Positions 6,703 to 42,294 of a stretch of DNA of 64,000 bases are shown here, piece after piece. Made by a program: the position numbers and the translations under genes. The first letter of the stretch is position 1. Each line of letters starts with the position of its first letter. The notes below the pieces were generated by a model. The model saw nothing but the letters and a program-made list of their open reading frames with translations. It searched no databases and had not been told where the DNA came from. Origin of the DNA: Pezizomycotina sp. ARF18 (Eukaryota > Ascomycota). The stretch spans positions 263,968 through 327,967 of the forward strand of contig AZLU01000011.1 in assembly GCA_002224055.1 (NCBI GenBank). Direction: 5' to 3'.

Positions 6703-6783
6703 GTGTGTGTGTGTCGCAAGTTTCTTTTTGTCGAGCGAGCAGGAAAAGGTAGCAGGTGTGTGTGTGGGCGTGTGTGTGTGTGT
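6703..6783. repeat. imperfect (GT)n microsatellite
   Basis: Two blocks of GT repeats (about 6702-6714 and 6754-6783) separated by about 40 nt lie 130-210 nt upstream of the GNAT start codon at 6575, so they fall in its likely promoter or 5' UTR. On the gene's sense strand this is a CA repeat. Confidence 0.85.
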
Positions 6784-6879
6784 GGTAACTTCCCCAAGGG
6801 CAAAGGTACGGTGCGAGAAGTGGAGAGAGAGGTGTGGGTGCCCCAATCGCTGCTGAGAATGCAATGCAAACAAGACCGA

Positions 6880-9201: not shown

Positions 9202-9234
<33 letters not shown>

Positions 9235-15955: not shown

Positions 15956-15961
15956 CAAACC

Positions 15962-17162: not shown

Positions 17163-17193
17163 TCGGAGCTCTCCATAACGTTATCGTCTTAAA

Positions 17194-17194
<1 letters not shown>

Positions 17195-17227
<33 letters not shown>
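17195..17227. repeat. poly(A) tract, 33 nt
   Basis: Uninterrupted A33, 33 nt after the stop codon of the DUF3824 gene. It is the longest A run in the window, followed by A32 at 42263-42294. It could be a 3' UTR element or simply one of the many A/T slippage tracts of this genome. Confidence 0.95.
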
Positions 17228-17228
<1 letters not shown>

Positions 17229-20200
17229 ATGACGATCGGTTGAGATGTTGCGGAGTGTTTGTTTATTCTGTTGAGCGAAAACGAACGCGAGAACGAAACG
17301 AGGCGCCAAAGCGTTGTGAAAGTCCGAAGATATCTGTTACAGGGTGGTCTGGTTTATTAGTTTTTCAGTTTTCAAAGCTTTTCATCTCGCATCTTCTACG
17401 AAACGCATTCGTTTTTTTTCTTGTATTTACGATATTCTCTGCTTCCGTACTATTCTGGATACAACCCAACTTTTCGGTTTACGAGCTGCGATTGCAACTC
17501 CTGTTTATATTGCTTGTTTGTCTTCCTTTTGTTGTATATCTTCGGTTTTTTGCACAGTCTATAGTATTTCCCCTCAAACCCTTTTGACCCGATAACGTCC
17601 CAATACGTATTACATTGCAACTCACTATCGCTACTAGCACTAGAGATCGACTCCGCATGCATCTGTCTACACCTAAAAAGTTTATTATCTCGGTTCGCAT
17701 TTTGACATGTAAATATCGAACTAAACACTAGCTCAATAGAGCTGCCGAAAAAAATGAAAGATTAAAAGGCTATTCTCTTGATCAGCTTCCATTTTGTCGC
17801 CAAAGTCGTTAATCTTCATCTGAACGAACGTCATCGTCCATTACAGAGTGATACATCTGAAAGTCGTGATACAAAATATCCCCTCATCATGAAAACGTCA
17901 TAAGCAGCAAGGGTATTTTGCCCAATATCGGAAAAATAACGGTCGTGCTTGGAAGTTCTGCGGCTAAGCGTAAAATATTGCTCTCGATTTTATTTTATTT
18001 TATTTATTTATTTATTTTTTTATTTCCCTCTACAAAAGACGGAATCGGCCGAGCGATTTTCCAGCTTGCAAACTTCTTTCAATTCCCCACACCACCGCCA
18101 AAATACAACGAAGCGGCCAAAGCGGCCATTTCTCCTCCGTCGATCCATTTCCTTAACGCCGTCTAGACTCTCGCTACGGACATCCATGATCAATGCAAGA
18201 AGCTTGGCTGAGGATGGAACGATAACATTCACTTTCACCGTCTGCTTTCCCTGCAAACTGCACTGCTTACGACGTGCAGGAATTCGGGTTAGCCAGCTCG
18301 CTCGTGAGGAGAAGGATTTGAGGCAGGAAAGGATGCAGATACAGAGAGAAAACCTGTCGATAAATTCTCCGGGTAGGCAATTGCAAGTATTCTTTTTCAA
18401 GTTCTTGTTTTTTTCTAGCTGCTTTGCTCAAGTGCAATTGATGCTTCCGATGTAGCTTCGAATATTTGCATGATGAACCCCCGCAATTGCAGAGATAAGA
18501 ATTGTCCGAAATCTTCAATTCAACACTCACTGATACCATCTTCTGTTTTATCACCTGTTTAGTTTATTGCAATCGCCCATGTTGCCTGCTGGAGGCAAAC
18601 TGCCGAAACGAAAACCCTAAAAAAAAAAAAAAAAAAAAATCGGTCAAGATCCCTATCGTTCAAGACGTGGCGTGATTGAACACCAATCGCCTCCTCAATA
18701 TCGAGGGAAGGCTTTCAGCTCAAAATCTCGCCTACTTCGACATCCATGTTCGTTTATTTAACGTGCTGTCTTGCTCGCCAGATAAGACAAAAAGGACACG
18801 ATTGATTAAGAAATACACTGTCAAAAGTCTGCATTTTTTTTTTTTTTTTACCCCGCAATTTTCGATTCGAGGGGTGATAAAAGAAAAACGATAGCGGTGC
18901 AATTGACAGTTCACCACTCTTAAATTTTTATCGCTGCTGTCGTGTGGTGGTGGTGGATTCTGCAAGAACATCCAAGGATGTTCGGAGCTATCAAACCGCC
19001 GTTTGCCGCCGGGCACTGAGGAAGAGGAACATTGAACTGAAAGAGGTTTATTTTTTTAATATGTATACTTTTACTGACAAGTATTTTTTTTTTTTGACCT
19101 GGCAGTTTTTCTCACGCACCGATTTTTCATCACTTTTATTAATATTTGATTTCTGATTATTAGGCATGTCGATTGTGAAAAAAAAAAAAAAAAAAACCCT
19201 CCGCGGCCGAACAGACTTTGTCGCCAGGTCTTCCTGCACCACATCCAGTCATCGAGGGCGAAAATTTCTTTCTACGATAATCGTTTTGGTTTTCGTTTTT
19301 CATCTTTCCTCGATCTTTTGTTGTTAGCGGTATGAAATGATCGGCTGAGGGATACGGGCACGATTGCAATTGAACGAAAAAGACAAGCAAGATGCAGCTG
19401 CATGGACACACGAAAGTACGGAAGATCTGCTTCATTTTCTATGCAACACGGAGGCTCTTATACTTTTTGTCATTGAACTCCAGCTCTCGTGATCTTTGAC
19501 CCAGAGGAAGAAAAACTTTTCATTCCAGGTGGTATTTCTAGAAATTTGATAACACCTTGTGCCTATCTTTTCTTCGAGTATTCGCGCGCAAAGGTTAATA
19601 TTTCTTTTCGTTGTCACACAAGACTCGATCGTGAAATGTGGATTGGGGATCTTTTTTGGTCCCAGCCGTATGGACCAACCGATTAATATTCAAACTAAAA
19701 GCTTTGCTCTCCTAAGCTTACCAACGATCCTGGCTTTCTCCGCAAATTGATACTCCTTTTCTTTTTTTTTGGAGGGGGGGTGCAAAATAAGTAAAGAAAA
19801 AAAAAGGAAAAAATAAAGGAGATATTGTTATTCCGTTTTGGAACAAAGAAAGCTCTAGCTTTTAAACCACGAAGGGCAAGTTTATCCCCAACAGATTTCA
19901 CGGTGTGGGATAAATTTGAAATCACTTTACTGACAGGAGTCGAAAGCGAGATAGGTTACATCATAGGTAATGGCTACTCAGTCAACACTAATTTCTTTTA
20001 TGAAATTGGTGGTGATTTGGAAATTGGTGGTGATAAGTGTGATAAATATCCCCCCTTATTTAGGGGGGTTCGTGTGTGAACCGAGAATAACGATACAGGC
20101 TTTTTCTGAAAGAGACGGAGAGAGCCTTTTCACGGTTTTTTTTTTTTTTTTTTTTTTTTTTAGTGTGTCCCCCACCCCTGGTCAATGCAGCCGATATGGT

Positions 20201-20516
20201 TGGCAGGAAAAACTTTCCCACACACAGCAAAACTCCAAAGAGTCCAAACCCATCACTTCGGGTCCGTCGTATTTACTTTTTTCTCCGTTAGTGCTTTTTA
20301 ATTGCTGATCACCTTTGCTTTTTGCTGTGCTTTACTTCCGCTCGTGTGCTGCTTATTTCGTTGCTTTGCTAAGTAGACTGTAGAAAGCGTTGCTTACCTC
20401 TTTTTTTTTTCCCCTTGTCGTTGTCTTTTATTTTCTCACCCCCCCTCCCCAAACTTGGCAGGCTTTTTTTTTTTTTTTTTTTTTAATTTTTGTTTTGCTT
20501 TTCTTACAAAGCTGTG

Positions 20517-20539
20517 ATATATATATATATATATATATA
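20517..20539. repeat. (AT)n microsatellite
   Basis: About 11 perfect AT dinucleotides in non-coding DNA, about 710 nt upstream of the gene starting near 21250. Confidence 0.95.
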
Positions 20540-21249
20540 ACTCGAGGGAGGACGAAACCGTCCGTGCCAATGCGAAAAAATAGCTATCACATCCTACGCT
20601 ATTCGTTAAGAGGGAGGAAAACAGCCTTAAGTCTTGCTGTGCTTTCCCCAGCCGTTCGGTTTCCATTATTTTCTCCTCAAAACGGAATAGAAAAAGGCTA
20701 ATGTAAGGAATCAGAACAATTCTCTTCTCTTGTTGCAGAGAAAGAATGCTCATTCCTGGATATTAAAAAAAAAAAGAAAAAAGGGAAAAAAAGTGGGATT
20801 TCGAAGACGCACTGCCGCAAGCATCCATACAGTCACTCCACCACCTGGGACAACACAACACCACCCTTCTGTTGTTAACAGCCTTATCCCGCACTGGACG
20901 AACAATTCGACCTGCAGCAGAAAAGAAAAAAAATTTTTTTTTTCTCCCGTTGGACAACCTGGCGAACGAGGACCACGTATCTCATTTGTTGTTAATCTTC
21001 CTTTTATAAAAAAAAAAAAATTTTTTTTCCTTATAGATCGACCAGTTATATTTCATTTTTTAAATTTTTATATATAAAAATTCCGTTCGGATTCTTTACT
21101 GCAATCCTTGAACATATAAGGGATATCTAGCACTTCGTTTATCTATCCCGTCTCTTCTCTCCTATCGATACACCTCCAAACAACAAGGATATCTCTTCTC
21201 TCCTATCAACAACAACCAACAAAACCCGACAAGCCCAAATATCACATAT

Positions 21250-21878
21250 ATGGAATACATTACTGGATCCGTCACGATGTTCTTCAAACACCCATTCTTC
21301 TCGACGGTGATGTTCCTGTCCCTATCCGCTACGTACTCGAACGCAAACCACAACCGGTCCAACGACCCTTACCTCGTACGGCCGCAATACCCTACGGCCA
21401 ATTTACCTTCCACCGCAACATCGGAAGTCTCCATCCCGCAATTACCGCCGTCGAATTCATACTCATGCACGACGCGAAGAAGATATTAAATTTCGTCGTC
21501 CGATCGCTGGACGACGGCGGCCGAGGAGCAAGTGCCGCGGACTACGTCGGCGTACGAATACAAATACTACGAAGCCGCAGCTGAGCCAACGGCGGTGTCC
21601 GATTTACGGCGGGCGGTTCACAGCGTTGAAAAGTCCGCGCTGACGGAGGAGGATTGGGGCCGGATACAGCGACTGATCAAGAGTATCATCGACGAGTACG
21701 GCCATCCGGAACCTGAAGCGGCCGAGAAGCCTGCTACACCGTCGAGGAGCCTACCGCTGAGATCGAAGAGGAAGTCTTCGAGGACGTCCTGCAGAAGAGG
21801 ACGCCCGGCCAGGTTATGGCTACGTACATGGCGGGAACGTTCGTCGCATACCACGCCTTCTCACTACTATTCCTATAA
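21250..21878 (+). CDS. unknown protein (frameshifted reading)
   Basis: Not recognised. An ATG at 21250 begins a Phe-rich hydrophobic stretch; a second frame over the same region continues as HPAITAVEFILMHDAKKILN and FVVRSLDDGGRGASAADYVG. A third reading from about 21530 gives SDLRRAVHSVEKSALTEEDW and RIQRLIKSIIDEYG. A final frame change near 21740 gives EIEEEVFEDVLQKRTPGQVM and YMAGTFVAYHAFSLLFL before TAA 21876-21878. The hydrophobic C-terminus could be a tail anchor. The joined product is about 200 residues with two or three single-base indels. The 5' leader has two copies of TCTCTTCTCTCCTATC (near 21151 and 21192). GC-rich, regular composition across all three frames supports a real gene; the start is uncertain. 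Confidence 0.5.
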
Positions 21879-21884
21879 AACATA

Positions 21885-24870
21885 TCACCAAAAAAAAGTT
21901 TTCCTACATATAATTCGGGTTTCTTTTCTTTGTCGGTTTTCTTCTAGCGTGTTCTTCCATTTCATTCCTTAATTCCTTTGTTGAAAAAATAACATTTCTT
22001 GTAATACATATTTCGTTTTCTCATATTTCCTTTCAGCCCTTTTTTTTTTTCGCATTATCACTATAACGACCGGAATATCCTCGCACAAACTTTTCTTACG
22101 GAGTTGCCTTACCGCAATTACACAATACTCGAGTCTCACCTCAGGCTTTTTTTTTTTTCTTTTTTTTTTCCCTCTCGGACGGCCGTTACATCCACATTAC
22201 ACTTGCACAAAGAAGAAGCGTAATGCACTGCACTACTTTGCACATTGGGGCGACCCAGAAAAGCCCATCATCATTCATCATTCACCGGTGTAAATATCCA
22301 TTTTCGCATCTTTCTCTTTTCTCTTCTAAAAAAAGTAGCGACTCTTTTTTTTTTTGCTTTGTATGGGAGGTTACATTTGCTTTACTCTTTTTTTCTTATT
22401 CACTTTGTAAATAATACTAGTAGTACATCTTCGGCATTCATTTTTTTTTTTTTTTTTTCCTTTACTTTTTTCTTATTTCTTATTCATCTATACACTACAC
22501 TATAAGACAGAACTCCTCAACATGAGTGATCAACTTGTATGATAACATCTTTACATATAAAAAAAAACTGCTTGGGAAAAGAGTATAAAAAAAAAAAAAG
22601 CAGTTCGGAGTCCAAAAAACAGTATCTTTGGACAAATAACAATAAACAAAAAAAAAAATCAGAATAATACCAAGAAACAATTGACAACTTTATCTTCCTT
22701 TTTGCTGCTGCCTCGATGATTTTTGACGATCAATGATTTAATAACTTTGTGAAAGTTTTTAAAACCTCCGTTGCCGATCTCGAAAACAAATATTATCGAT
22801 AAATTAATTACCCCCCATTGACCAACAGTCTCTATCTCAATCTCGATAGAGTGCTCTTCGAGGTGAGGGGCTTTTTTTTTTTCGATATTAAGGGGGGGGC
22901 TGGAGGCTGCCAGTACAAGCACAGATAATAATATTACGTACCCGTGAACAATTTCGGAATCCGGGAAAGGTTGAACGATCACACAGCCGGGTTGGATAAA
23001 AGTGGGCAAAGTGGGAAAAGAAAAAAACCCACACTACTAACATGTAACAAAGTGTAACAATCTTCTCATGTTTTATCGGGAAAGAATACCCGCGATAGTT
23101 TATATATCCCTTTTTTTTTTAAGTTCCGAATGGACAATGTTTTATCATGTATGCACAAGACAAGACGTACGTTTGAAACAAATAGCCGTTTAAACTTGTT
23201 TATTTATCATCAAAATATAAAGCAGATAATTAACCGGAGATAGGATGGAAAAATTAAAACGTATTTGGGCATTAAAAGTATTGCGGCAGCTTCCTGAATC
23301 TTGAAGAAGATATACCGTACCTGTTTCTCTCCATTTTTTTTTGATAAAATGATCGCGATATAGGCTATACAATATATTAATTATATCAGTTTCGCAAATG
23401 CGTTCCCGCAATCGTAGCCTCGCTTTGCGTATTAAAAAACGGCTGTGGCGCTGCTGTTCCTGCTCTTCCCGCCGACACGATTGCCATATAAGACAGGATC
23501 TTCGCTTTAGGCTAATACGAAACCATTGAGTTTCGGGGAAAAAAAAAAAAAAAAAAAAAGCTTCTTGAGCCTTGCGCGACTGTTCATGAAGTAAATAACC
23601 ATCGCAATACGATCAAATTCGGACCGTAAAGCACGGTGTCTTCCATTTGCAAATCCCCGGTTTCATTCCTTTTTACACGTGTTAAATTGATACAGAAAGA
23701 TGTGAGAAGATAACACTCGGAATATCATCCGAGAAGGCTTTATAGGCGCCGTATTGTTGAATTTTGTGTCGAATAAATGAACGGTTTGTGTTCGATGATC
23801 TATTCATAGCCACAAGAATAGAAATTATAAATACCGGAGGACGAAATTTTTTTTTTTTTTTTTTTTTTTTTTGATGAATACACCCTGGGCTCTGAAATAA
23901 TACGATATACCGTTACTGAGACGGTCGAATTGGTCTCGACCCTAGTGAAGGGTCAAACTTAAAAAAAATAGGCGCTAGATACGGTGTTATATATATAAAA
24001 CTAATAAGCGCGTATCGCGATATATGGTTTGGAAGACCGCTGTTAGCAAAACACGAGCAAACTTGTGGGGAAGAAGGAAAGAGACCACTCATTGAACGGC
24101 ATGTATAGGAAAGAGGTGACCCTTGTAGTATTAGTTTTATATGCAAATCTTTACCTTTTGGAATATCAGGCCAATATTTTTGCAATCGTCGGAGATAAAG
24201 TAGTATAACTAGAAACATACAAAAATGTTTGCTTCCAGCAGTAACTCTGGCCGGCGATTGCTGTAGTTGAAATCGGCGCGAATTCGAAACCTCGTTCAAG
24301 CAAAAGATGCTCCAAGCCTTTCGTCTTCCAGAGTAAACGCTCAACAGACGCATGAATCGAGAAGTAAACTCACTTTAGGAACGGTAGCAAACCTCCAGCG
24401 CACTCTTCGAAAAAAAACCAACAACGTCTATCGCGTTGTCAAACGTATTCGAATCAGAGAAAGTTTTGATAAACCTCGAGCTATCGGCGGTCCGAGCGTC
24501 TGCCGCAAATGCATTGTTATCTTCGAGCCACTAGCAGTTATCACTCCGCAAACCCTAACAAAAACAGGGAAAACCGCGTGGGGTGGAGCCGCAAAAAGCA
24601 CGTTTGGCAAAAAAGCTGATGGAAATGCACAACATACTTTCGCAAGAGTAAAAAATCTCCACGGGGGCAGGCAGCCTTACCCTTACCCGCCTCTTCACGG
24701 CTCTTATTCGGATCTTTCTGATGGCTTCTGGACGTTTTCAAGGAGCTCAGAACAAGCTACCTTCTCAGTCCTCGAATAGATGCCGCCGCAAAAGATTTCT
24801 TGTTGTCCGAGTGCACGCGTTACGACGACTGTCTCTTCCGAAAGCCCCCTGTCGTTCACACCGTAGGCGG
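21885..24870. other. AT-rich spacer upstream of the NLR-like gene
   Basis: About 3 kb of AT-rich DNA with T18 at 22441-22458, A21 near 23540-23560, T26 at 23847-23872 and many shorter runs. A 170-codon plus-strand frame at 24267-24779 ends just before the NLR-like start at 24876; it is basic and has no recognised motif, and may be leader sequence or chance. I see no other gene. Confidence 0.4.
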
Positions 24871-24875
24871 AGAGA

Positions 24876-27800
24876 ATGAAGCGAACGGCTTCGAAGTCCT
24901 CGAAAGCCTCGCGGCTCTCTCTTGATTTATCCGGTTCTGAGAGGCTTAAGAAATTTCTGAGAAGATTGAGCACGGGCGGAGCACCGCTGACTCCAGCCGG
25001 GCAACCGAAGTCGCCCACTACCAGTTCTATCGCGTTCAATATTTCGGATAACGATAATTTAAAGGACGAATCACCTCTAGAAAAATCAAACGTCGTCCAG
25101 GATTCTCCGGATGCCCAAGTTCTTCCGGAGAAGTCGACTGAACCCGCATTTTCAGCAGAGTCGCGGTTATACTGCCGAGTCTTCATTCAATCTCGAACCC
25201 CGGAAAACGAGCAACACGCGACTCTCCCACACCTCACGATCGGACAAGCCGCTATCGAGAATGAAGTAATCGAGTATGACCGCACCGGTTTATCCCAAAA
25301 TGACTCGATAATTGGATTGTTGACTAACCGTGTTTAAAAAAAAGAAATCAAGAACCGTCCCTTTGGGCGAATGCAATGAAGCATATTCCGGCGAGCGACC
25401 GCGCCATCCTCGAAACCTCCGGGCAGGTCGCAAAGCCGGAAGAATTGATCGCCGAGACCTACAAGGCCCGCGAAGCCTGCATCGAAAGGCAGCTAAACTT
25501 CCGATGGCGCGGCGAAAAGTTCGCAATGCGGGATATTGCAGAGAAGATACTGGCGTGGGTTCGGAAGTTCAAAGAAATCGGCGATGTCGTCGTGCAGATT
25601 GACCCGATACATGCCTCTATACCGTGGGCGGCCTGCCGGATATTGATGCAGGTAAGAACCCCCGTTATATACATTTTTGGGAAAGGTACTTCAGCAGTAT
25701 AAGAAATAGCTAACACTGTAAGCAAGTGCGGCCTAGCGGATACCGAAAACCTGGAACAATACTTTCGGGATCGAAAAGTCGACGAATATCATCGGCAGAT
25801 GTGCGGTGTATGAAAGGCTGTACCTTCCTGCCAAAGATCACATCTCCGTAGTGCTCAGGAGCCATCTTGTCGAAGTATATGCCGCCGTTCTCCGGTTGCT
25901 GGTATGGGGAAAGAAATATTTCTCAAAAAGCACCGCAGGTAAATTGCTCCTCTGTGGCCGGAACCGGATAGGCGGCTTCGCTAACTTCTTTTCGTTAGTA
26001 AGAATCACTACAGCGGTCTTCCAGGACAACCTCGTCAAGATAATGGAGGATATGGATGACCGGCAAAGGTAGTCTTGAAGGATGTAGCGGTCATTGAAGC
26101 CGAATGTACGTGTAGGCAAAATCATAGTCCATACCCGTTATCTATGCTAAGATATATCCTAGACCGCATACTGAGAACCAGGATATTTCGGAGAAGCTAC
26201 AAGGTTTAATGTTTGCACTCTTCCTACGAACACAAGAGGCTGAGGAGCCTTTTAGAAGAATTCACGCAGCCAATAGCTCGTATCGACTTTAGAATCGCAG
26301 CCATGGAAGCAACGCATAGAGGTTTTGCCACCCCTGAACCGACTGGATAGAGACCGGAAGATGCTGAAAATTGAAACCGATAGAAAACGAGAGAGCGATG
26401 ATTTTGAACTGGCTATCGGACATCGAGTACGAAAAGCATTATTACAAAGCCCGAGCGGGCAGATCGAAGGCACTTGTAAGTGGTTGACAGGGCACGAAAA
26501 ATTCAGAGAGTGGCGGAGCTCTATTTCGTCCAGCATTCTCCTCCTCCGAGGGGATCCCGGCACCGGGAAATCCAAATTAACAGCGACCGTGACGGAAGCT
26601 TGCCTGGAGCATAGGAGGGATAATGAGAGCCAGGAGGCAATAGCTTACTTCTATTGCGACCGCAATGAGCGGGACAGGACGATGGATCCTGAGAAATATT
26701 CCTCACACTACTCAAACAGCTTTCGTATATCGGGGAAGGTGGACCTCTGCAGCCACTGATAGTCGATGAATACCAAAAGAGGAAGAACGGGGTTTGCTTC
26801 GAAGCATCCGGAGTTCGATCTTTGCGTTCATATGATAATCGTCTCTCAGAACTATATCCGCAGACTGTAATCATCATTGACGCCTTGGACGAAATAAATC
26901 CTGAGATTAGGTTTGATGTAATTGATGGTCTTCGAAAGATCGTCGAGCATCTTGCGGCCTTGTGAAACTGTTCATCTCGAGTCGGAACGAGGAGGATATT
27001 CTAGCTCAATTCGAGGATTCGTCATTCATTACATCACACGAGTGATAACGGGCACGATATCGATCTTTTTGTGGATGTCGAGTTTGAGAATTATTTTGCC
27101 TCAAGAAGAATCCGCTGGAAAGTGGATGAGGGGCAGAAAGCCGAAATAAAGCAGTCCCTGAAGAGCAGCGCACATGGCATGTTCGTTAGCCCCTCCTTAC
27201 ATTTTAGCATATCGCTTTAATGTTCTGATCTGAACATGGAAATTGACAACTCACTTAGGTTTCTGTGGGTCGATTACCAACTCAAATCGCTTTCAAAATT
27301 ATCCCACCCGACGAGATCCACGACGCCTTACAAGGGCTGCCAAAGGGCTGAAAGAATCGTACGATGTATTATGGATGCTATACACCAAGAAGAAGGTCTT
27401 GGAAGAGCTGTCGCATTTGCTGCTCTGAGCTTAGTAGCTGGAGCCAATACTCCTCTTCGCACTGATGAGATGGTGAGCTGTATTTGGTATCCCGGAATCG
27501 AAAAGGAATTCAATGTTGATACGATCTTGGGAAGTGCCACGGGCTCGTTGTCTTAGACCCGACCTGAGGGTCGTTAGATTTAACCACCTCTCATGCCTAG
27601 AATACTTAGAGAAGTACCAGTCATTCCTCGTTGAGCAATCGGCCACTAGTTTCCTCGCCTCTTGTTTGAAGCTCATGATGCAGCCTGAACGTGCGACGAG
27701 CCCTCCCCTGAAGGCTATTTTACAGTATGCGACGGAGCAATGGATCGGCTTGACACAGATTGCTGTCATCCAGGGCGTTGAGGAGAACGCAGAAATGAGG

Positions 27801-29444
27801 GAACTCATAAGATGCTTTCTTGCCGAGCATCTAAACTTGGGAGATATCTGGTCCCCGACAATAACAAGGGCCTCCGCTCTGGATATCCGCCCGCCCATGC
27901 CGGGCAACGCGAATACAAAGATATTCTCCATAACACCTCGTGGCGAAAAACCAGATCCCTTCCTGGCTGCTGCATTCTTGGTCTGCTCGTTCATTTTCGA
28001 GGATGCCGAAACGTACGACCTGAGCCTGACAAATAGCTACAGCGAATCTTTGCTGGAGATCGCCTGCAGTATGGCCATATAAAGGTCGTTCAAAACTTCT
28101 AAAGGATGGCGCGGACCCAAACCTTGGGGAACGCTGGTGGTCGAGCGCCCTTAGTGAAGCGGTTCTGCATACCACGTTGAGATTGCAGAAATGCTGATTA
28201 GCCAAGGTGCCGACGTCAACCTATTCAATCCTATAATAGTTGCAATATCTGAGGGCTACCTCGAAATGACGAAGCTTTTGCTAGCAAAAGGTGCTCGAGT
28301 AAATGATACCACGAACAAAAGAATTTTGGGGATTGCCTCCAGGTAGCGAGCTACTACGGCCAACTACAGATTGTAGAGTACCTCATCGACAATGGCATCT
28401 GTAATGTTAATGCCCCACCCTCCGGAATCTATGGGAACGCGCTTCAGATCGCCTGCGTACATTCGGGCGACACGTCTCGCGAGGTTCGCTGAAATGCGCT
28501 ACTCATATTATCGAAACCCTGATAAATCACGGCGCGGATTGAACTGATGGCGGTTACCATGGATCTGCACTGCAAGCGGCGTGCGCGGACAGCCTTAGTA
28601 GCGAGAACGTTGCAATAGTTCGTTATCTTCTCCAGCGTGGCGCTGACCCTAACCTGGCTGGAGGCTATTACGGAAGCCCGTTACTTGCGGCGGTACACTG
28701 CAATGACTCCGCGGTTGTCCGTCTACTTCTTGATGCGGGAGCGGATCCGAACATCCCGCGAACAGACGGGCCTTGTACAATGCTGTTAGGAGAAGGAGAC
28801 ACGAAATCGCAGAGTTCCTTGTGGAAAGCGGCGCAGACTGCATGCCTTAGGCGGGGCCATTTAGGTACTCCAATTCATGCTGCTGCGCTAATGCTGACAG
28901 CAGATGATAAAAATCTTACTTTCAGGGAATGCGAATGTGAACTCTTGGGACTGGATTTGTAGGACGCCGCTGCTAGTCGTTGGGATTAGTACAGTCGTCG
29001 ATTGCGACGAAGCAGACACCTGTAAGACACTCCTTCGTCTGCATGGTGCCGAAGGTTCTGTTGTAGCTGCACCTAACGCAACGTCTAGAGACTCTCGGCG
29101 CGAGCGGGGGTTACGTTCCTGGCAAGGCGGTGGCCGGCAAAAGGATAGACGACACTGAAAAATTCTTGTGCTTGGACTTGCTGGGTCGGTGTCTTTTGCT
29201 CTGCGGGAATGACGACAGGGCCGCTAAAGTTTTCGCTATCACAAGTCGCTGGTCTGCGGCAATAGCGAAGGGCCTCCAAGGATACCATCGCATGTGCTGC
29301 GTCGCCTGCATGCAGGACAATACCTCACTTTGGCCGCGGTGGGTCTGCAGGAGCTGTGTCCATGTCATCCTGTGTCCGGATTGCTACGGCAGTTCAAGCT
29401 ATCATCAATACCTCTCCCAGCTGCCAAGGGCTGCAAAGAAATAG
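24876..29444 (+). CDS. NACHT-ankyrin NLR-like STAND protein with C-terminal ZZ-like zinc finger
   Basis: Predicted signal-transducing NTPase of the fungal NLR-like class (heterokaryon-incompatibility and immunity-type proteins). Order: Ser/Lys-rich, probably disordered N-terminus (24876-25340); conserved pre-NACHT helical region (LWANAMKHIPASDRAIL, RDIAEKILAWVRKFKEIGDV, then GRCAVYERLYLPAKDHISVV after an intron near 25652-25722); NACHT with Walker A GDPGTGKS (26550-26573), Walker B VIIIDALDE (about 26867-26893) and KLFISSRNEED; winged-helix-like region (about 27260-28080); ankyrin repeats (28085-29060, e.g. AEMLISQGADVNL, VRYLLQRGADPNLAGGYYGS, VRLLLDAGADPN); C-terminal CVAC-CRSC-CPDC finger (about 29296-29386) resembling a ZZ domain; stop TAG 29442-29444. 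About 1450 residues. Ten or more frame changes are needed, e.g. one A missing in KVVQ-LLKDGADPN near 28093. This could be sequencing error or a decaying NLR. Confidence 0.85.
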
Positions 29445-29449
29445 CCATC

Positions 29450-30378
29450 AGTTTTTTGAGGTGGTAGATCCTGGCGGAGAACACGAAGCTCTTCTGGATT
29501 GACGTTTCCAGAATGGCTGGAAAACCTGAGCGTGGAGTATGAAAGCTAATCTTATGTCCACGGTTTCGATTGTTGCCTATAGATGTTTTTCTCTCTTTTT
29601 TCCTGTTTTTTTCGCGTGGAGTTGCGGTTGGCTGGCTTTCCTTCAAGTTGTTAGTCTTTTCGAATTCATTAGCGTACTAGTATCCATGCATTCGCTCCAT
29701 AGTTGGTACAAATTTTTTCTCTTCCTCGCGATGGCGAAGTCTGCTTTCTGTCGTCCGATAACTGCTTCGGTCTGATCTACGAATTGAGAGTGATGTACGT
29801 GTATGTCGGCCCTCCAGGAACCACTTCTCCGGATTGCTTCCTAATTGTGTGTCGATATCGCTAGATGAAGAAAGCGAGTGTTTTTATAGCCGAAGATCGA
29901 TAGTGGAGAAAATAGAAACAAGAGTGATTACCCTGGATGAAGATAGTCGGTAAATCATACTCACCAGCCTCTCCTAGACGTTGAAGCATGGTTCCCAATT
30001 CTCTTATTGAAACGAAAAATTCGCCGAAAATCTCCCAGCTAACCTTCTTTTCACCTCGATCGGCCCCTGCAGAGGCTACGTGGCTGCAGGGACATTGCCT
30101 CACGCCGAGCACTCGCTCATTCTTGAATATTTCAAATGATGAGTGCGTTGCACAGGAAATAGCTTCATTGCAAATCATGCTTTTTTTGTCCATATAATGT
30201 TTCAAGGCTGAGCCCGAGCCTTTGCTTCTTTCCGCCGCACAAGTGAGCAAATTCCGCTAGCCGTTGTGACCCGGGCGCAATGGATTTCCAATTGCCAGTG
30301 CTTAAAACCATGAATGTCTCCGAGCTCCATTTTGAGCAAATTCTTTAACCAAGGACAGAAATACCCTTCGGATGATAC
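29450..30378. other. spacer between NLR-like and rhodopsin-domain genes
   Basis: About 0.9 kb. Short open frames exist on both strands (for example 29539-29775 plus, hydrophobic, and 29861-30250 minus), but they have no recognised motifs. It probably holds the 3' UTR of the NLR-like gene and the promoter of the next. Confidence 0.4.
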
Positions 30379-30381
30379 AAG

Positions 30382-31531
30382 ATGGCGACATCGTATTGGA
30401 AATATGAACCATTCCCTTATCATATACCGTTCATAACTCTATCGTCTTTTTTCACAATCATTGTGATATCGCTCGTCGCAGCAAGATGCTATATTAGATT
30501 AAGGATTGTTCGCTCGTTCGGGCTTGACGACTGTAAGTTCCATCGGTGGCTGCTATCTCGGTGATGAGAAATCGAGCTAATTGTCGGCGCAACAGACCTG
30601 ACCGTATTTTCGTTGCTACGGTAATAAATTGTGCTCTGATAATATACCTCTCCGTGGAAGAATCTGAAGATATCATCATGCGACAGAGTACGCTTACAAC
30701 ACTGTAAGTTAGTATAAGTATCTATTCTAGTTGACTTGAAATTATTGCTAACGGTATTCAAAGCTCTCACAAACCTTAGCGTGCACCTTATACGTCCAAA
30801 ATACGTTCGCCAGGACCTCCATCATCTGCTCTTTCCGACGATTTCTGCGCGTGAGTGCGTAATAGCTCGATTGACAACGCTAGTCCTCGTTTTCGTGCTC
30901 GTTGCGTTATGCGTCGTAACGATATATTTCACGGCGTTTGGATGTCGACCCTTTCATGTATTGATTTACACCAAAGCGTTCATGCGTAAGTCCGCAAGGG
31001 TACCTACAAATGTCACGCCCCGAAATCGTTTTCTTTATTTCTGGATTCCGAATTGCTTGCTCGACTTTTTCATCTTTTTCCTTTCTGGCTGCTAACCAAG
31101 CGTTAGTACACTTTTTTTTTTTTTGTTTGTTTGTTTTAGGGCTTTTCCGCTGACATACCTCGTCGCTCCTAACACAGACGCCTGAGAGAAAGACCGCTGT
31201 GGTTTGTATATTATTTTCGCCTTCGTGGATTGTAAGAACCTTCTGGTATAATATGCGTGATTAGGTAGCTGGTGCTAACTACTCCTTGTCCCTTTCTAGA
31301 GCATTGGTTATTAGCGTCCTTCGCGTCATCCTGACAATCCACCTCATGCACGGCGTGAAGTATACCTACTTCATGCTTAGCCTTCTCCTATCCATCCTGG
31401 AGTGCAACTTCATCGTCATCGCGGCTGCATTGCCAACGATGCCGCCACTGTACCGCAAACTGAAGCAAATGAGCGCGTCGAAGAAGAGCACCGACGGGAC
31501 GCCAACACTGACTCCTCGCAGGAGCATGTAG
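30382..31531 (+). CDS. rhodopsin-domain (PTH11/SAT4-type) integral membrane protein
   Basis: Predicted multi-pass plasma-membrane protein of the fungal rhodopsin-domain family, which includes PTH11-like receptors; ligand unknown. The ATG at 30382 gives a first membrane segment and the family hallmark RLRIVRSFGLDD (about residues 39-50), ending at a GTAAGT donor at 30533. A second exon (about 30596-30703) holds VATVINCALIIYLSVEESED. The third (about 30736-30986) covers VLVFVLVALCVVTIYFTAFG and CRPFH, where the family has a conserved C-x-P. The last (about 31300-31531) contains SVLRVILTIHLMHGVKYTYF and ILECNFIVIAAALPTMPPLY, the typical final helices, then a short Lys/Ser/Thr tail and stop. At about 280 residues or less it is short for the family (350-450), so an exon may be missed or one helix reduced. 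It lies about 0.9 kb downstream of the NLR-like gene on the same strand. Confidence 0.75.
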
Positions 31532-31534
31532 TGG

Positions 31535-32300
31535 GAGGCCGGGAAGGGGTGAGCTGAGAGGGAACCACGGCCGTCGAATCTAGTTCAAAGGAGGAGGTAC
31601 ACATAGATACTGAGGCGGATAAGATCGGTCGAGCGGTATGAGAAGAGGACTTGCAACTTCGAGACTGCAATGAATGGATACGTATCAAGCTTCTTTTTTT
31701 TTTTGTAAAAGAAGTCAAAGTCTGAGGCAGCGATTTGTGTGTAGTAGTATATCTTTCACTTTGAATCTCATGAATTTTTCTTCATGTCCTTGAGTCTGCC
31801 GAGCGTTGTTTTTGTGAACTTGGAAGATAGCAATGAGATGCATCAAAGCGAATTCTTCTGATGAGCTGTAACAGGGTCGTTGAGAGAGGAGAGTGAAATA
31901 TATGGCTAGTATTTTTTTTTTTTTTTTTTTTTAGATAGTGGTGGCCCTCACATTCCTACTTCGGATTATTTATATTCAACAGTACATTGTCCATTTCTAG
32001 AATACTACCAACAATTTCTAGAGAATCCTTAAGTATTCTACCCCGACTGCCTCTCAATCTCTCCAAGTCATGAGAATGGAACTTCTCATCTACGCGCGCA
32101 AAAAATTTCGATCTTTAAGATCGCAGATACGAAGAGCCACATCCGCGTCAAGTACTGGCTGGCATACGGAAGGTAGGAAACGCCTGTCACAGCTCTTCTG
32201 AAGGAAGCCGGCTAACCACTTCTCCCAGGCTCCTCTAGCTTCCCGCAACGGGTAAGCTTTGCACTCGCAAGACCAATCGAGCAAGCCGGCTAACCTGCAG
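31535..32300. other. spacer, poly(T) tract and AT-rich DNA
   Basis: Contains T22 near 31911-31932 and AT-rich DNA with no supported gene. A 64-codon minus-strand frame at 32090-32284 has Cys and Trp residues but no recognised motif. Confidence 0.4.
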
Positions 32301-32347
32301 ACCCGTCAACCTCCTAACCTCCACTGCGTCTGCCATATCCTCACCAC

Positions 32348-32860
32348 CATGCCGCCACCACCACCAACACCCACCCTCCCTCATACATCACCCCAACCAA
32401 CCCCGGCCTCCTACCCGGCCTCTACCTAACCCCCCACATCCGCGTCCTCCCCACGCGCCTACCCAACACCAACTGCTGTACCGCACCCCATACACCAACA
32501 CAACAACAACAACACAACAACAACAACAACAACTACACATTCGTTCTCCGCGCGTACAAAGACGCCAACTCCGCCCTCTTCTCAGCGTCCACCATGCGTA
32601 ACGCCATATCACCTTGCTGCACCGGCATCCATACCTAACGCCGGGTGTGGCTGGGAGTGCTATACCAATTCTACGGATATATATGGGTTGGGAGTCATGG
32701 CGGAGTGTCTGCAGGGATTGATTAAAGTGGACTATTCCGCGTTTGGCGGGGAAACTTGGGGAGGGGGAGAAGGGTATTAGTTGGATTAGGAGCGAGTGGA
32801 GGACGTACGAGCAGGTACAGGAGGAGAAGCTGAGGATGTCGTATTGTGTTGTGGAGGGTT
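32348..32860 (+). CDS. possible Cys-containing, Asn/Gln-repeat secreted or GPI protein
   Basis: Not recognised. From a Pro-rich start near 32348 a second frame gives PTNPGLLPGLYLTPHIRVLP, then a Gln/Asn repeat encoded by CAA/AAC triplets (about 32499-32535), then YTFVLRAYKDANSALFSAST and ISPCCTGIH. After a frame change near 32630 it continues AGCGWECYTNSTDIYGLGVM and AECLQGL; a further change gives WIRSEWRTYEQVQEEKLRMS and CVVEG before TAG near 32860. The Cys pattern (CC, C, C, C) and Asn-x-Ser/Thr site suggest an extracellular protein, but I see no signal peptide, so the 5' end may lie upstream. A frame downstream to 33056 is hydrophobic and could encode a C-terminal membrane or GPI segment. 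Start and end are both uncertain. Confidence 0.35.
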
Positions 32861-33494
32861 AGGGGGTTTTGGGTTGTGTTTTTGGTTGTGGTGTTGTTAT
32901 GGTGGTTTTGAGGGAGGTGGTGTGACTGTAACTGTATTGGAGTCTGTTTTGGTTTTGGATTGGAGTCTTGGGGTTTTGCTTGTTTGGAGTAAGGAGGAGG
33001 ATGTGGAGTATATCGTTTTGAGTGCGTTTTGGTGTATTGATTATGGCGTTCTTTGACTTTGTGATCACGACAGAGGGGACAATCGAATAACATGAAGAAA
33101 TGGAAAATACATCGAAGGTGTAGGCGTTAGACTGCCAATGTAATATACCACGGCAGGCGCTTCAAATCTGGGAGTAATACAAATGAACAAATGACAAGCT
33201 GACAACTTTGTGGAAACATATCTCGAAATAATGAATGTGATCCCATTAGAAAAGATAAGAAAATCGTATCATTACTATCCATTGTTTACCTATTGAAAAG
33301 CGGGAATAGCAAGTAGAGCACCTGGAGTTTTTTTTTTTTTTTTTTGTTTAGGAAGGATACAAATATAAGTGGGCGTTTGTCCTGCGCGAGAAAGGACGAA
33401 AAAAAAAAAAGGAGAAAGGAAAAACGGAAACCTATGAAACCAATAACTTGAATCTGGAGAAAACAAAGAGAGGGGAAGAAGGGAGTAAATATTT

Positions 33495-34463
33495 TTAGAA
33501 GCCACCGTCGAAACCACCGTCACCACCATCAAAGCCGCCATCCCGAACCCGTCACCCCCGAAGCCATCCCCGATCGCATCTGCCACCAGCAGACCGCCGA
33601 GAGACCAGCACCAGCACCTAACGCCAACCCGGCGCCGCCTCCGAACCTACTCCTTCCTTGCTGCTGCTGCTGCTGTTGAGCGTACATCGGCTGTGGCCCA
33701 TACCCCGGCTGTGGCCCGTATCTCGATCATACCCCTGCGGCTGTTGCCCACCGTAATAACCCCTGCGGCGGTCCGTACGCGCTTGCGCCCAACCTGCTGC
33801 TGCGCTGGTAATACGCCTGCTGCTGCTGCTCTGCTCGTAGTACTGCCTCTGCGCCTGCAGCCTCTGCTCCTCCATCGCTTTCTGCCTCTGTAACTCCGCT
33901 ATCCGCCTCTGGTGCGCTACTCCTCCTTCGCCGCGTTCTCTTCCTCTTTGCGTTGGGCTTTTAACGCTTTTTCTTCCTCTTTACGTTCTTTTTGCGAGGG
34001 GGTGCGCCGAGGAGGGCGGAGAGCCGCGGTGGTGGGAGCCGCCGGAGCGGGGGGATTCGGAGGTATACGCGGCGGCGGCGCGTCGGAGGAGGAACCGCCG
34101 GGCCGTCTCTCGAGCTGCTTGTGCTCTGCCGCTTAAATCCGCTTTCGAAGGTAACGGCGATGCTCCCTGCGCTGTTCTGCGGCGGAAGCGGGATCGTTTG
34201 CCGACGGTTCGCTTCGCTGAAGGGGTTGTTGATTGCTTGGCGGCGGTATGTACTGTGTTGTTGTGTTGGAAGGAGGCGGAGAGGAGCGGGTTGTTTCGCG
34301 ATTCATCGTGCGCTGCCCGTTCCATTTCGTCCGTCGAGGGGGTGGACGTATATCGTCCTCGGGGTTCCTGTCGGATGTCTACCCATATCGGCACTTGCTG
34401 CGGGTCCCAGTCCTCTATCCACCCTTCGGCACGGACGGTTGTCCTTCTTCGCTGCTCTGTCAT
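33495..34463 (-). CDS. WW-domain protein with Gln-rich middle and Gly/Asp-repeat C-terminus
   Basis: Fungal WW-domain protein; WW domains bind proline-rich peptides, partner unknown. From ATG 34463 the N-terminus reads RAEGWIEDWDPQQ, then, with indels, WVDIRQEPRTIYVHPLDG, matching a WW fold (first Trp, central aromatics, final P). The middle is Arg/Pro/Ser-rich with a frame-shifted 'INNPF..NRRQTIPLPPQNSA' segment. A Lys/Glu helix and a poly-Gln tract (QQQQQQ encoded by CAG, near 33660-33680) follow. The C-terminus, in another frame, is LGGLLVADAIGDGFGGDGFG followed by GGFDGG repeats and TAA at 33495-33497. This order (WW, Gln-rich, hydrophobic Ala/Gly helix, Gly/Asp/Phe tail) is usual in the family. 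About 310 residues; several indels are needed. The start is 592 nt from the divergent 2OG oxygenase start, so they may share a promoter region. Confidence 0.7.
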
Positions 34464-35055
34464 TGTTTGTGCAGAGTTTGTGGTGATGCTGATGAAAGTC
34501 TTGATATGTCGTGAGATGAAATAGTAAGAGAAAGAGAAAGAAAAGAAAGAGAAGAGAAAGAAAGAAAGGAAAGGCTGAAGAAAGAGGGTGACGATATTTA
34601 AATGGCAAAATGGGCAAAAAGCAGGTGAGACAGGCTAAATAATAATAAGGGTTCAAAGTGTGGCTAATGTAAGGGCGAAATTGGCCTAGTCTTGGCAATT
34701 ACGCAAGCACCACCAACAATAATTTATTGGCCGGTTGGAATCAAAATGCTTGAAAATTAGAGAGGAGCGCAGCCACTCCTTTCAGCTAAGCCACTTCTAC
34801 TGGAACTTTCTTTCCCCGGACCGATTTCCTGCTATACAACCTTAAGGTATCACGGACATTACATATATCGTACATCGTCACTTGTTTCTTTTAACTCCGT
34901 CTCGTACTCGGAGGAAAAGGGCATGCGAGGGTTACTGAAAGTCATTTACCTAACAAATCTCCTCGCCGAGGTCTGTTTTTCTTTTTGCTTAATCTTTCTT
35001 ACTTCCCTCTTCATCGATTATCAAGCTCTGCTCCTCCAATTCCAAATCCAAAAAA

Positions 35056-36147
35056 ATGTCCGGCTCCACCGCAGCAGCGATGGAGGAAGTCCACGACGAC
35101 GACCTCCTCCCCATGATCCACCTAGAAGACCTCTACGACGACCCATCAACTCTCTCCTCCGTCCTCGTAACCCACGGTGCCTTCTACCTCCTCGACCCCA
35201 CTCCCTCCGGCTCCTGGACCGCCGCATCCCGCCTCTTCTCCCTACTCCCCGAAGAAAAAACCAACCTAAAACACCCGAAAGGTCTGCAGATCCCGGTTAC
35301 AACTCCGATCCCCGCTCCGGCCGTGAATGGTGGGATCTAACCCCCGAATCCACCGACGGCTGCGCTGGTCCGCAAACGACGACAGCTTCCGCGACGAAAC
35401 GAAGGGTTACTTCTCCGCCGCTGTAAACTGCTCAGTGCGCTAACGGAGGTGCTGAGGGATACATATCCAGCTATCCCCCGCCAAAGCGTTAGAGCAGGTA
35501 TGAGTACTATGCGTCTGCTGCGGTATTCGAAGTCTCTAATTCCACCACGGAGAACCCGCACGAGCCGCCGCCTACGCCACCGGAGGTGTAATGGCGGAAG
35601 ACACGGAGGGTCGAGAGAAGGATATGAGAGAAGCGAACGCGGCGCACCACGCGCAGACTAGCCGCATGCAGCCGCACACCGACCACGGCGTTTTAACGCT
35701 CATGGACGCCGATTCGAGGGGTTATACGTGTACGGTCGGACGGACGTGTATACGCTGCCCCGCCGGTGAAGAACGCGGTTATTGTTTCGCGGCGGATAGT
35801 CTGTGCTGGTGGACTAGGGACGAAGAAGACGGGAAGAGGATACTGCCGGTTCCGCATGAGGTTTGGATGACGGGTGAGCAGGAGAGGATGAGCCTTGCGG
35901 TTTTCTTCAGGCCGAGTAATGATGTTGTCCTTTACGATTTGAGTAAGGTGGAGTCGACGGGTAAGGTAAAGGGAAGGAGAAGGCGGAGGAGAAGGCGGAG
36001 GAGGAGGGTGAGGGAGAGAAGAGGAGGAATGAGATGACTTACGGAAGGTGGAGCTACGAGAAGGGAAGGATAAAGGGCAGGAGGTGCTGGCTCATCGGGA
36101 GAGACCCCTTGGGAGATTCACAAGCGACGACTGTCGCCGATCAATAA
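35056..36147 (+). CDS. 2OG-Fe(II) oxygenase (isopenicillin N synthase-like)
   Basis: Predicted non-haem iron, 2-oxoglutarate-dependent dioxygenase of the isopenicillin N synthase/gibberellin oxidase type; substrate unknown. The ATG at 35056 follows an A-rich leader. The N-terminal DIOX_N-like part reads LLPMIHLEDLYDDPSTLSSV and LVTHGAFYLLDPTPSGSWTA, then, after frame changes near 35285 and 35365, REWWDLTPESTDG and DETKGYFSAAVNC. The catalytic part has MQPHTDHGVLTLMDADSRGY with the HxD iron ligands (His codon 35675, Asp 35681), the second His in VPHEVW, and the 2OG-binding Arg in ERMSLAVFFRPSNDVVLYDL. A further shift in an AAGG-rich tract near 35968 gives a Lys/Glu-rich tail, MTYGRWSYEKGRIKGRRCW, and TAA 36145-36147. 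About 360 residues, normal for the family. It converges on the GNAT gene 122 nt downstream. Confidence 0.8.
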
Positions 36148-36268
36148 AAAAAAAAAAAAATCTTATTATTAATTCTCAACGCTAGCGTTATTCAATGCAG
36201 CTATATACCTTTATAACAAAGCTTGTACATATTTATCCGAACAAAAGCACAACATTATTCTCTTATTT

Positions 36269-36946
36269 TTATCCAGGATTTAAAGCATTCTCCGTCGTTT
36301 TCACCACCGGTCTCGGTTTCCGTATCATAAACACCGTAGTATCAACCTGACTTTCCCCCGCCCGCACGGCACCGTCAAACCTATCCACCTCCTCCCACCC
36401 GAACCTCCTATACAGCTCAAACCCTTTATCAGAAGCCTCAATATACGCCTCCAGCCATCACGATCTGCCAATTCCAACCCCCACTTAATCAACATACTCG
36501 CAGCCCCCTTCCTCTGAAACTCCGGCCTCGTCCCAATAACCTCAAAAAATAATGCGGTCTCTCCCCCATATCTCCTTCCTCTTTTTAATCAACGTCTCAA
36601 AGTAATCTTTACAATCCGCCGCGGTGATTCGGGAGGCCAGGATACGTCGGGTTCCAGTGGTCGTCTATTTTGGTGATTCCGTTTATGGGACCATCCATTT
36701 GCAGAAGGCGATTGTGTTTGGTTTTATACCCCATGTAGGGTCCAGGGTTGAGGGTGTTGAGGGGAGATTATTTTGAGGAAAGCGAGCGCGGGGTCGGAAT
36801 TTCGAGGGTGTTCATGTTTATGGACATTGCATTGTGGAGGGACGCGGGGAAGAGGTCGAGAAGAACTCGTCGGTGAAGGCTTTGAGCCAGATGTCCGAGA
36901 CAGAGGCTGCGTCGGAGGTGTCGCAGGGTTCGAGGTGGAGTGCCAT
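36269..36946 (-). CDS. GNAT-family N-acetyltransferase (second copy type)
   Basis: A second GNAT acetyltransferase, not closely similar to the one at 6 kb. The ATG at 36946 gives LEPCDTSDAASVSDIWLKAF and TDEFF, the usual start of fungal GNATs that begin with a 'D..R/A..I...AF' helix. After several frame changes in the middle, motif A reads VIGTRPEFQRKGAASMLIKW (Q-x-x-G/K-G-A acetyl-CoA loop), followed by GLELADRDGWEAYIEASDKG and FELYRRFGWEEVDRFDG, and a C-terminus VDTTVFMIRKPRPVV. The TAA is at 36269-36271. About 220 residues, as expected. At least four indels. Convergent with the 2OG oxygenase. Confidence 0.8.
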
Positions 36947-36949
36947 TTG

Positions 36950-38180
36950 TAGAATGATTAGCGAAATCGCGCGGATGGTAGTGAAAAGTAATTGAATTGA
37001 TTGAAAAGTGATCCGAACTCGATTCACGACGAGGCCTTGGAAGCTGAGAACGGGGCGCTTTATATAGATATCGGAGACCTCTTATAAGCCTTTTTTGACA
37101 AAACTAGAAAATTATCAGTAAGATTGAAGCCATTTGTTTGAATGATATCGATAAACCGCAATCGAGCAGGGAAAGAGCAATCGGCCTCCGGAACCTTTGC
37201 CTTATTCATACGGCGAGAATGAATCACGAATGCATTTGTGAGACCCGCCATTTGATGACGTGAGTCATGGTCACGATGTTCCGGAAGTGGTGGAGCTTTG
37301 AACGTCGGATTATCGAGATACCCGTTGCGATCGCCTTGAGTGGGGATATGATCAGGTCCCGCAAAACGAATTAAAAAACTCACTCACTAACAATGTCCCT
37401 TCATCTTGATGCTCTAGAATTGATTCTGTTTCGCGAAAACATCTATACTTCGTATCACGGAAACCCACGGAAGCGCAGCATCAAACTAATTCTCTCCCCT
37501 CTTCCTGTATTTTCGACCACGACAGAATGTTCATTCGCCGACTATTACTACGTCACGGAAACTCACGGAAAGTATCACGAAGCTCCTGCCACTGACATAA
37601 GCACAATGTATCTTCGCGTAACGTTACGTGAATGCCACAAGCCGCGTCCATTGACCTGACGCGCTTCAGTGCAGACTGGTCTATAGCTCCACGACATGAA
37701 ATTTTAATAAAGCGAAAGGACGAAAAATATTTTCCCATTGACTATAAATACTCTATCTAAGTCCCAACCTCTCCTTCAAACCTTTCTCTTCTTTCGACTC
37801 TTCCACATTCCATTCTCATCAATCAATCAATCAACCAATTGGCTAGAGAGACTTCATCCACTAATTATAACCATTTGGTTCTATTTTTTTTTTAGCTATC
37901 TCCTTTCTCCAACGTTCTCTCCTTATCCAAATGGTATCCTTCCACTTCTCATCATCATGCTTCTGCATCCATTACGCTAGGCCAGCTGTCCTCTCGCTTG
38001 GATGTTAGCCGAGTCACATCCTTCCTATAGCTGCCCGTCGTAGGGTAGGCAAATAAACAAGACATCCCTGAAGATTAGACCAGCTTTTCACACACAGATG
38101 CCGGTCTATCGCGCTAGAAAGTTTATGTGGAATCCTCCCGCTCCAGCATTGGTATTACCGGTCTAGATTCTAATGCTTTC
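36950..38180. other. spacer, no supported gene
   Basis: Mixed-composition DNA. Open frames of 88-107 codons at 37060-37383 (minus) and 37393-37659 (plus) show no motif. Around 37525-37590 the plus strand has short repeats of 'cacgg(a)aa' type. The region probably includes the promoter of the minus-strand GNAT gene. Confidence 0.4.
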
Positions 38181-38189
38181 CAATTGTCA

Positions 38190-38690: not shown

Positions 38691-38699
38691 ACGTTGGCG

Positions 38700-42262: not shown

Positions 42263-42294
<32 letters not shown>
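42263..42294. repeat. poly(A) tract, 32 nt
   Basis: Uninterrupted A32, about 290 nt downstream of the GH55 stop codon (which is on the minus strand, so the tract is T-rich on the gene's sense strand). Confidence 0.95.

What the first reader, a model, noticed from the sequence alone, without database searches (positions are those of the whole stretch)
24876..29444. NLR-like gene with NACHT, ankyrin repeats and a C-terminal ZZ-like zinc finger
The best candidate for an unusual system. Walker A GDPGTGKS, Walker B VIIIDALDE and the pre-NACHT helical block place it among fungal STAND NTPases. Ankyrin repeats form the sensor. After them comes CVAC-x(n)-CRSC-x(n)-CPDC, like a ZZ finger, in the position where a ligand- or partner-recognition module could sit. 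The N-terminal effector region (about 150 residues) matches no effector domain I know. A C-terminal finger after the repeats suggests a second recognition surface.
Basis: partly seen in the sequence, partly recalled or inferred. Interest (0 to 1): 0.75.

Follow-up and report, generated by a model that had tools for sequence, protein, structure and literature searches.

The report
Fungal NACHT-ankyrin receptor with zinc finger
This is one of many immune-receptor-like genes of what looks like a filamentous fungus, with a nucleotide switch, ankyrin repeats and a zinc-finger-like tail; receptors of this general build are already described, so it is an ordinary family member, read here through an error-ridden assembly.

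Summary
24876-29444 (+) encodes, in pieces over three frames, an unannotated N-terminus, a pre-NACHT block, a NACHT-type NTPase (NPHP3_N, 3.8e-17), ankyrin repeats and a six-cysteine finger at 29298-29384. The finger most likely belongs to the same gene: its open frame has no ATG before residue 76. The frame breaks are probably assembly errors: all 5 HSP70-type loci that I laid out (of 7 seen) show abutting frame changes too, so gene decay cannot be judged. The Cys spacing is ZZ-like, but the finger does not match the Pfam ZZ profile. One other locus (contig C276) shares the pre-NACHT block and the finger, which there passes the ZZ cut-off by 0.4 bits, and shows no NACHT or ankyrin. The genome holds 102 NPHP3_N matches. 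A 2025 survey of Sordariales NLRs (PMC12258605) already reports C-terminal ZZ fingers, and treble-clef fingers next to canonical repeats, and suggests that they are sensors. New member of a known kind; low interest. The compact C276 gene is the only mildly unusual lead.

The parts
24876..25337 (+). N-terminal piece: basic start and probably disordered linker, no known domain
   Evidence: ORF; no Pfam family at E<=1; residue composition
25328..25702 (+). Pre-NACHT block, first part (contains DPIHASIPWA; the end of the coding part near 25650 and an intron after it are inferred)
   Evidence: ORF; no Pfam; matches on contigs C276 (35%), C69 (29%) and weakly C15 (E 0.045)
25737..26072 (+). Pre-NACHT block, second part (assignment by position and recall)
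   Evidence: ORF; no Pfam
26277..26759 (+). NACHT-type NTPase, first part with Walker A GDPGTGKS
   Evidence: NPHP3_N PF24883 3.8e-17, 63.4 bits against cut-off 24.8
26693..26965 (+). NACHT-type NTPase, second part with Walker B VIIIDALDE
   Evidence: NPHP3_N E 0.011, 16.4 bits, below the cut-off, profile positions 118-150
26966..28082 (+). Post-NACHT region in several frames
   Evidence: ORFs 27221-27556 and 27477-28082; no significant Pfam; the 27221-27553 piece matches two other fetched NLR loci weakly (E 2.4e-4 and 0.003)
28090..29010 (+). Ankyrin repeats spread over three frames (outer limits by eye)
   Evidence: Ank PF00023 2.3e-10, 1.8e-12 and 6.1e-6 in the three frames; 1.6e-11 in 28543-28959; the last piece 28898-29155 is weak (E 0.099)
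29160..29290 (+). Linker between repeats and finger, possibly helical
   Evidence: TPR_7 E 0.12 only, not significant; low-confidence helices
29298..29384 (+). ZZ-like six-cysteine finger C-x2-C-x12-C-x2-C-x5-C-x2-C
   Evidence: Cys positions 78-106 of the piece; relative L056
29391..29549 (+). Probable C-terminal tail in other frames, up to the stop at 29547-29549
   Evidence: three-frame reading, inference

Best explanation
A fungal NOD-like receptor of the NACHT-ankyrin class. Inferred working: at rest the NACHT ATPase is held closed; a ligand or an altered partner protein binds the ankyrin array, with the C-terminal ZZ-like finger as a second protein-binding surface; nucleotide exchange then drives oligomerisation, which brings the N-termini together and triggers a defence or incompatibility response such as cell death. 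Shown here: presence and order of NACHT, ankyrin and finger, the large number of related NTPase domains in this genome, and conservation of the finger's Cys in one relative. Inferred: nucleotide binding, oligomerisation, zinc binding, the recognition role of the finger, and any cell-death output. The many frame breaks are most likely assembly errors, so whether the gene is intact is unknown.
For: NPHP3_N 3.8e-17 and Ank; 102 NPHP3_N matches in the same genome, not merged into genes; six-Cys pattern once in the window, in 0 of 200 resamplings; a relative on C276, ranked first after the window itself in a genome-wide search with the pre-NACHT block (2.7e-10), that also carries a finger (tblastn 39% over 38 aa, E 0.007; pairwise blastp 9e-5; 11 of 5000 Cys-fixed shuffles) which passes Pfam ZZ (21.8 against 21.4 bits). 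Published fungal NLRs: zinc fingers in 57 NLRs, 52 C-terminal, 17 of ZZ type; 16 treble-clef fingers next to canonical repeats (PMC12258605 section 14). Frame breaks also in all 5 HSP70-type loci laid out.
Against: No single open frame. The finger itself has no ZZ hit at E<=10 and alone gives only E 0.45 to 0.85 for its four best chains of solved structures (MTF2, MIB1, p300, CBP). No homologue for the finger at E<=1 or for the NACHT part at E<=0.001 in the protein database; I suspect poor fungal coverage but did not test that. The tblastn match of the finger was made in 63 fetched loci, 13 of them brought in by the ZZ search, so that set was enriched for such fingers. Structure models are too poor to show a fold (mean pLDDT 42.4 and 48.7).
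Confidence: 0.8

Rival explanations
1. A decayed NLR pseudogene: the reading frame is truly broken, and the finger and repeats are relics.
For: Pieces lie in all three frames, with 48 stops in one frame read from end to end; many other NPHP3_N matches also hold stops; fungal NLR families turn over fast (recalled).
Against: All 5 HSP70-type loci laid out are broken in a similar way, with frame changes less than 40 nt apart from the next piece once per 268 to 928 bases; the window has only 15 stop-to-stop frames of 200 aa or more in 64 kb; no RIP-like composition in the gene (composite index -0.54).
Confidence: 0.15
2. The finger belongs to a separate neighbouring gene or is a chance Cys cluster.
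For: The finger lies in a different frame from the last ankyrin-like piece.
Against: Its frame has no ATG before residue 76, immediately before the finger (a start in another frame cannot be excluded where the assembly has indels); same strand and directly adjoining; pattern in 0 of 200 resamplings; six Cys plus other residues shared with a locus that also shares the pre-NACHT block.
Confidence: 0.05
3. The finger is an integrated decoy copied from a host target protein instead of a standing binding module.
For: Extra domains of fungal NLRs have been discussed as integrated decoys (PMC12258605).
Against: No other copy of the finger in the genome at E<=1, although that search is insensitive (it also missed C276); the same survey treats zinc fingers as likely sensor domains and names kinase domains as the good decoy candidates.
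Confidence: 0.08

Closest known systems
Fungal NLRs with C-terminal treble-clef (mostly ZZ) zinc finger next to canonical repeats, Sordariales survey, PMC12258605
   Same: NACHT-type NTPase, C-terminal canonical repeats, C-terminal treble-clef-like finger
   Different: Here the finger misses the ZZ profile; the gene is broken into frames by the assembly; no recognised N-terminal domain; the text that I read does not say which repeat type the ZZ fingers adjoin, and whether this gene is T-NACHT in their sense was not tested
ZZ-type zinc finger (PF00569; solved ZZ-bearing chains named include dystrobrevin, sequestosome-1, HERC2, CBP)
   Same: Cys spacing C-x2-C ... C-x2-C-x5-C-x2-C; weak matches to MIB1, p300 and CBP (E 0.61 to 0.85)
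   Different: Does not reach the profile; the last two zinc ligands could not be placed because of frame changes
HET-E-type incompatibility NLRs of Podospora anserina (HET-E described in passages of PMC9815663)
   Same: NACHT switch with a C-terminal repeat sensor
   Different: HET-E has WD40 repeats and a HET domain; neither appeared in the Pfam scans here

Membership tests
Fungal NLR (STAND NTPase, NACHT type) | NACHT/NPHP3_N NTPase domain with Walker A and Walker B | tested here: met
   NPHP3_N 3.8e-17 over the curated cut-off; Walker A and B readable in adjoining pieces; the Walker B piece alone is below the cut-off, and PF05729 NACHT itself is only E 0.18
Fungal NLR (STAND NTPase, NACHT type) | C-terminal superstructure-forming repeats | tested here: met
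   Ank PF00023 over the cut-off in three frames
Fungal NLR (STAND NTPase, NACHT type) | Recognised N-terminal effector or signalling domain | tested here: not met
   No Pfam family at E<=1 for 24876-25337, 25328-25699 and 25737-26069. Not required of every member: of roughly 36,000 fungal NLRs over 90% had an N-terminal extension and only 57% of those were annotated before (PMC9815663 passage)
Fungal NLR (STAND NTPase, NACHT type) | One intact open reading frame after splicing | tested here: inconclusive
   Frame broken here, but also in all 5 HSP70-type loci laid out, of 7 seen
ZZ zinc finger | Score over the PF00569 cut-off | tested here: not met
   No hit at E<=10; not in the genome-wide list of 13. 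The relative on C276 passes, 21.8 against 21.4 bits
ZZ zinc finger | Cys pattern with C-x2-C pairs and x5 before the third pair | tested here: met
   Sequence of 29067-29441; alignments. The ZZ pattern is recalled; it agrees with the aligned MIB1 match
ZZ zinc finger | Last pair of zinc ligands (His/Cys) after the third pair | tested here: inconclusive
   The tail after the last Cys seems to change frame; candidate Cys and His are seen in different frames
ZZ zinc finger | Binds zinc | not testable with these tools
   Needs expressed protein

The most novel reading that the evidence does not exclude
The finger and the pre-NACHT block form a matching pair of ends within this fungus's NLR family: a full-length NACHT-ankyrin receptor (this window) and a compact partner on contig C276 that keeps only the N-terminal block and the finger. 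The compact protein could be a truncated helper, inhibitor or bait that pairs with the full receptor through the shared ends.
Probability: 0.08. Interest if true: 0.5.

Novelty: new member of a known kind. Interest (0 to 1): 0.15.

Why it matters
It adds one more, poorly assembled, example of a C-terminal treble-clef-like finger on a fungal NLR, in line with the published suggestion that such fingers are part of the sensor end. If the compact C276 gene is real and expressed, it would offer a simple way to ask what the finger does apart from the NACHT switch.

Tried and rejected
Pseudogene reading: considered first because of the frame breaks; lowered after the HSP70 comparison, in which I laid out 5 of the 7 contigs with matches and left out C44 (2 matches) and C10 (1 match). 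Separate-gene reading: held unlikely on the position of the first Met. RIP: composite index of the gene -0.54, not RIP-like. Protein database searches with the finger (125 candidates, none at E<=1) and the NACHT part (276 candidates, none at E<=0.001) found nothing; I take this as poor fungal coverage, untested. Paralogues by DNA: only the locus itself. Finger by single-sequence genome search: only itself (E<=1), and the C276 finger only itself (E<=10); each missed the other, so the finger count in this genome is a lower bound. The match of profile A1 to ZZ domains in the PDB is circular, because two of its three rows lie in loci brought in by the ZZ search; I do not rest on it. The structure models were too poor, so no fold search was run. 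L060 (contig C36) has a ZZ-like finger just under the ZZ cut-off (20.3 bits), but its likeness to the window finger does not exceed the Cys pattern (1417 of 5000 shuffles); dropped as a relative. Regex scans for the finger: over all 63 loci then held found the window itself (L039, L040), L056 and L060; over 38 distinct loci (40 entries, two given twice; 153,831 bases with the repeats counted) found only L064, the same C276 gene. Most of the NPHP3_N loci reach only 1.5 kb past the NTPase match, and 6 were extended by 5-6 kb downstream; a finger broken by a frame change would also be missed, so absence elsewhere is not shown. My crude ankyrin regex gave 0 in all 7 loci tried and was not used. 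Of the 13 ZZ matches none lies within 20 kb of an NPHP3_N match (compared by eye). The middle piece of L056 has no convincing likeness to the window's pre-NACHT second part (E 0.055 over 9 residues) or to the finger piece (E 2.2). NCBIfam gave only matches far below the cut-offs.

Full report
What is in the sequence. The window is part of contig C11 (263968-327967) of a 46.36 Mb genome in 408 contigs. Between 24876 and 29444 on the + strand there is no single open frame, but open pieces follow one another in all three frames. Searched piece by piece against Pfam, 26277-26756 is NPHP3_N (PF24883), 3.8e-17, with the Walker A GDPGTGKS; PF05729 NACHT itself gives only E 0.18. The piece 26693-26962, in another frame, carries VIIIDALDE and a weak continuation of the NPHP3_N profile (E 0.011, below the cut-off). 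Ankyrin repeats are found in all three frames, with best matches between about 28.17 and 28.84 kb (Ank 2.3e-10, 1.8e-12 and 6.1e-6). The piece 29067-29441 holds the finger CVAC-x12-CRSC-x5-CPDC (29298-29384). A pattern of this kind occurs once in the window and in none of 200 Markov-1 resamplings.

Is the finger part of this gene? Its open frame begins right after the repeats, on the same strand, and has no Met before residue 76, which lies just in front of the finger. A separate gene read in this frame would have to begin at the finger. Because frames in this assembly are unreliable, a start in another frame cannot be excluded. The reading suggests that the protein goes on past the stop at 29444 in other frames (HQFFEVVDP, then PEWLENLSVEYES, stop 29547-29549). 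That extension is inference.

Why the frames are broken. HSP70-type genes of the same genome, expected to be intact, are broken in a similar way. Their PF00012 matches lie on 7 contigs; I laid out 5 (C49, C70, C303, C3, C208) and left out C44 and C10, which have 2 matches and 1. In all 5, successive pieces change frame with less than 40 nt between them, 2 to 6 times per locus, or once per 268 to 928 bases. Other changes in those loci leave room for an intron and were not counted. The 64 kb window has only 15 stop-to-stop frames of 200 aa or more. The breaks are therefore most likely indel errors of the assembly, and nothing can be said about whether this NLR is a pseudogene. The gene shows no RIP-like composition.

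What surrounds it. Within about 10 kb on either side (14801-24799 and 29501-39499), read in six frames with stops as X, the only Pfam match at E<=0.001 is a 2OG-Fe(II) oxygenase at about 35648-35914 (+). I see no sign of a multi-gene system, with the caveat that broken frames hide domains.

Relatives. The genome holds 102 NPHP3_N matches at E<=0.001 (several can belong to one gene), many with stops. A genome-wide search with the pre-NACHT block 25328-25699 finds, besides itself, contigs C276 (2.7e-10), C69 (3.3e-9) and, weakly, C15 (0.045). The C276 gene (L056, L064, minus strand) also carries, some 400 bases further on, a finger with all six Cys (tblastn 39% over 38 aa, E 0.007, in a set of 63 loci of which 13 came from the ZZ search; 11 of 5000 Cys-fixed shuffles score as high). 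No NACHT or ankyrin part is visible between them: none by eye, no NPHP3_N match on C276, and no Pfam family in its other two pieces. Its finger passes the Pfam ZZ cut-off narrowly (21.8 against 21.4 bits). The window's own finger does not match ZZ at E<=10, and alone its best solved chains are MTF2, MIB1, p300 and CBP at E 0.45 to 0.85. So: ZZ-like by spacing and by its relative, not a member by the profile.

The N-terminal region. The first piece of about 150 residues matches no Pfam family and is rich in disorder-promoting residues (0.56). What follows is the pre-NACHT block that has relatives in other loci. I see no new effector domain; a short signalling motif in the disordered part is not excluded and was not searched for.

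What is known. PMC12258605 (passages, section 14 in full), a survey of Sordariales NLRs, reports zinc fingers in 57 NLRs, 52 of them C-terminal; 17 are ZZ; [quoted passage not shown] The authors hypothesise that zinc-finger and SPRY domains act as sensor domains and may be additional canonical C-terminal domains. The architecture of the finding is therefore in print in its essentials. PMC9815663 (passages) states that over 90% of about 36,000 fungal NLRs have an N-terminal extension and that only 57% of those were annotated before, so an unannotated N-terminus is common. Of the other papers in the search listings (20 of 67 shown, none found, 11 of 11, 10 of 22, 10 of 54) I opened none.

Limits. 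No homologues outside this genome were reached. Single-sequence searches of the own genome are insensitive, so the number of fingers is a lower bound. The structure models were poor (mean pLDDT 42.4 and 48.7), and I ran no fold search on them.

Verdict. A NACHT-ankyrin NLR, most likely of a filamentous fungus, with a ZZ-like C-terminal finger; a member of a large family in the genome and of a published architecture. Interest low; the compact C276 relative is the only thread worth a further look.

Noticed in passing
L064 (G000:C276:7500-16500), minus strand, about 8350-6760: A compact gene with a basic N-terminus, a related pre-NACHT block and the same type of finger, but no visible NACHT or ankyrin part between them; a truncated NLR or an assembly deletion.
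   Followed up: partly
HSP70-type loci on C49, C70, C303, C3, C208: Abutting frame changes in housekeeping genes: the assembly seems to have many indel errors, so claims of pseudogenes or frameshifts from this genome should be distrusted.
   Followed up: yes
window 5947-6968 (-): A GNAT-acetyltransferase-like protein that seems split over two frames: one piece gives Acetyltransf_1 E 0.0017, just below the cut-off, the other gives no hit; the split is by eye.
   Followed up: partly
window 59495-60109 (+): Fragment of an OPT oligopeptide transporter (PF03169, 9.2e-17).
   Followed up: no
window 35648-35914 (+): 2OG-Fe(II) oxygenase fragment (3.7e-5); a 100-aa piece around it scanned alone gave nothing at E<=0.01.
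   Followed up: no
L060 (G000:C36:210680-213799), minus strand: A protein with weak TPR-like stretches (E 0.055 and worse) and a ZZ-like finger just under the ZZ cut-off (20.3 bits).
   Followed up: partly
window, e.g. 9203-9233, 17195-17227, 42263-42294: Many long runs of A or T, up to 33 bases.
   Followed up: no
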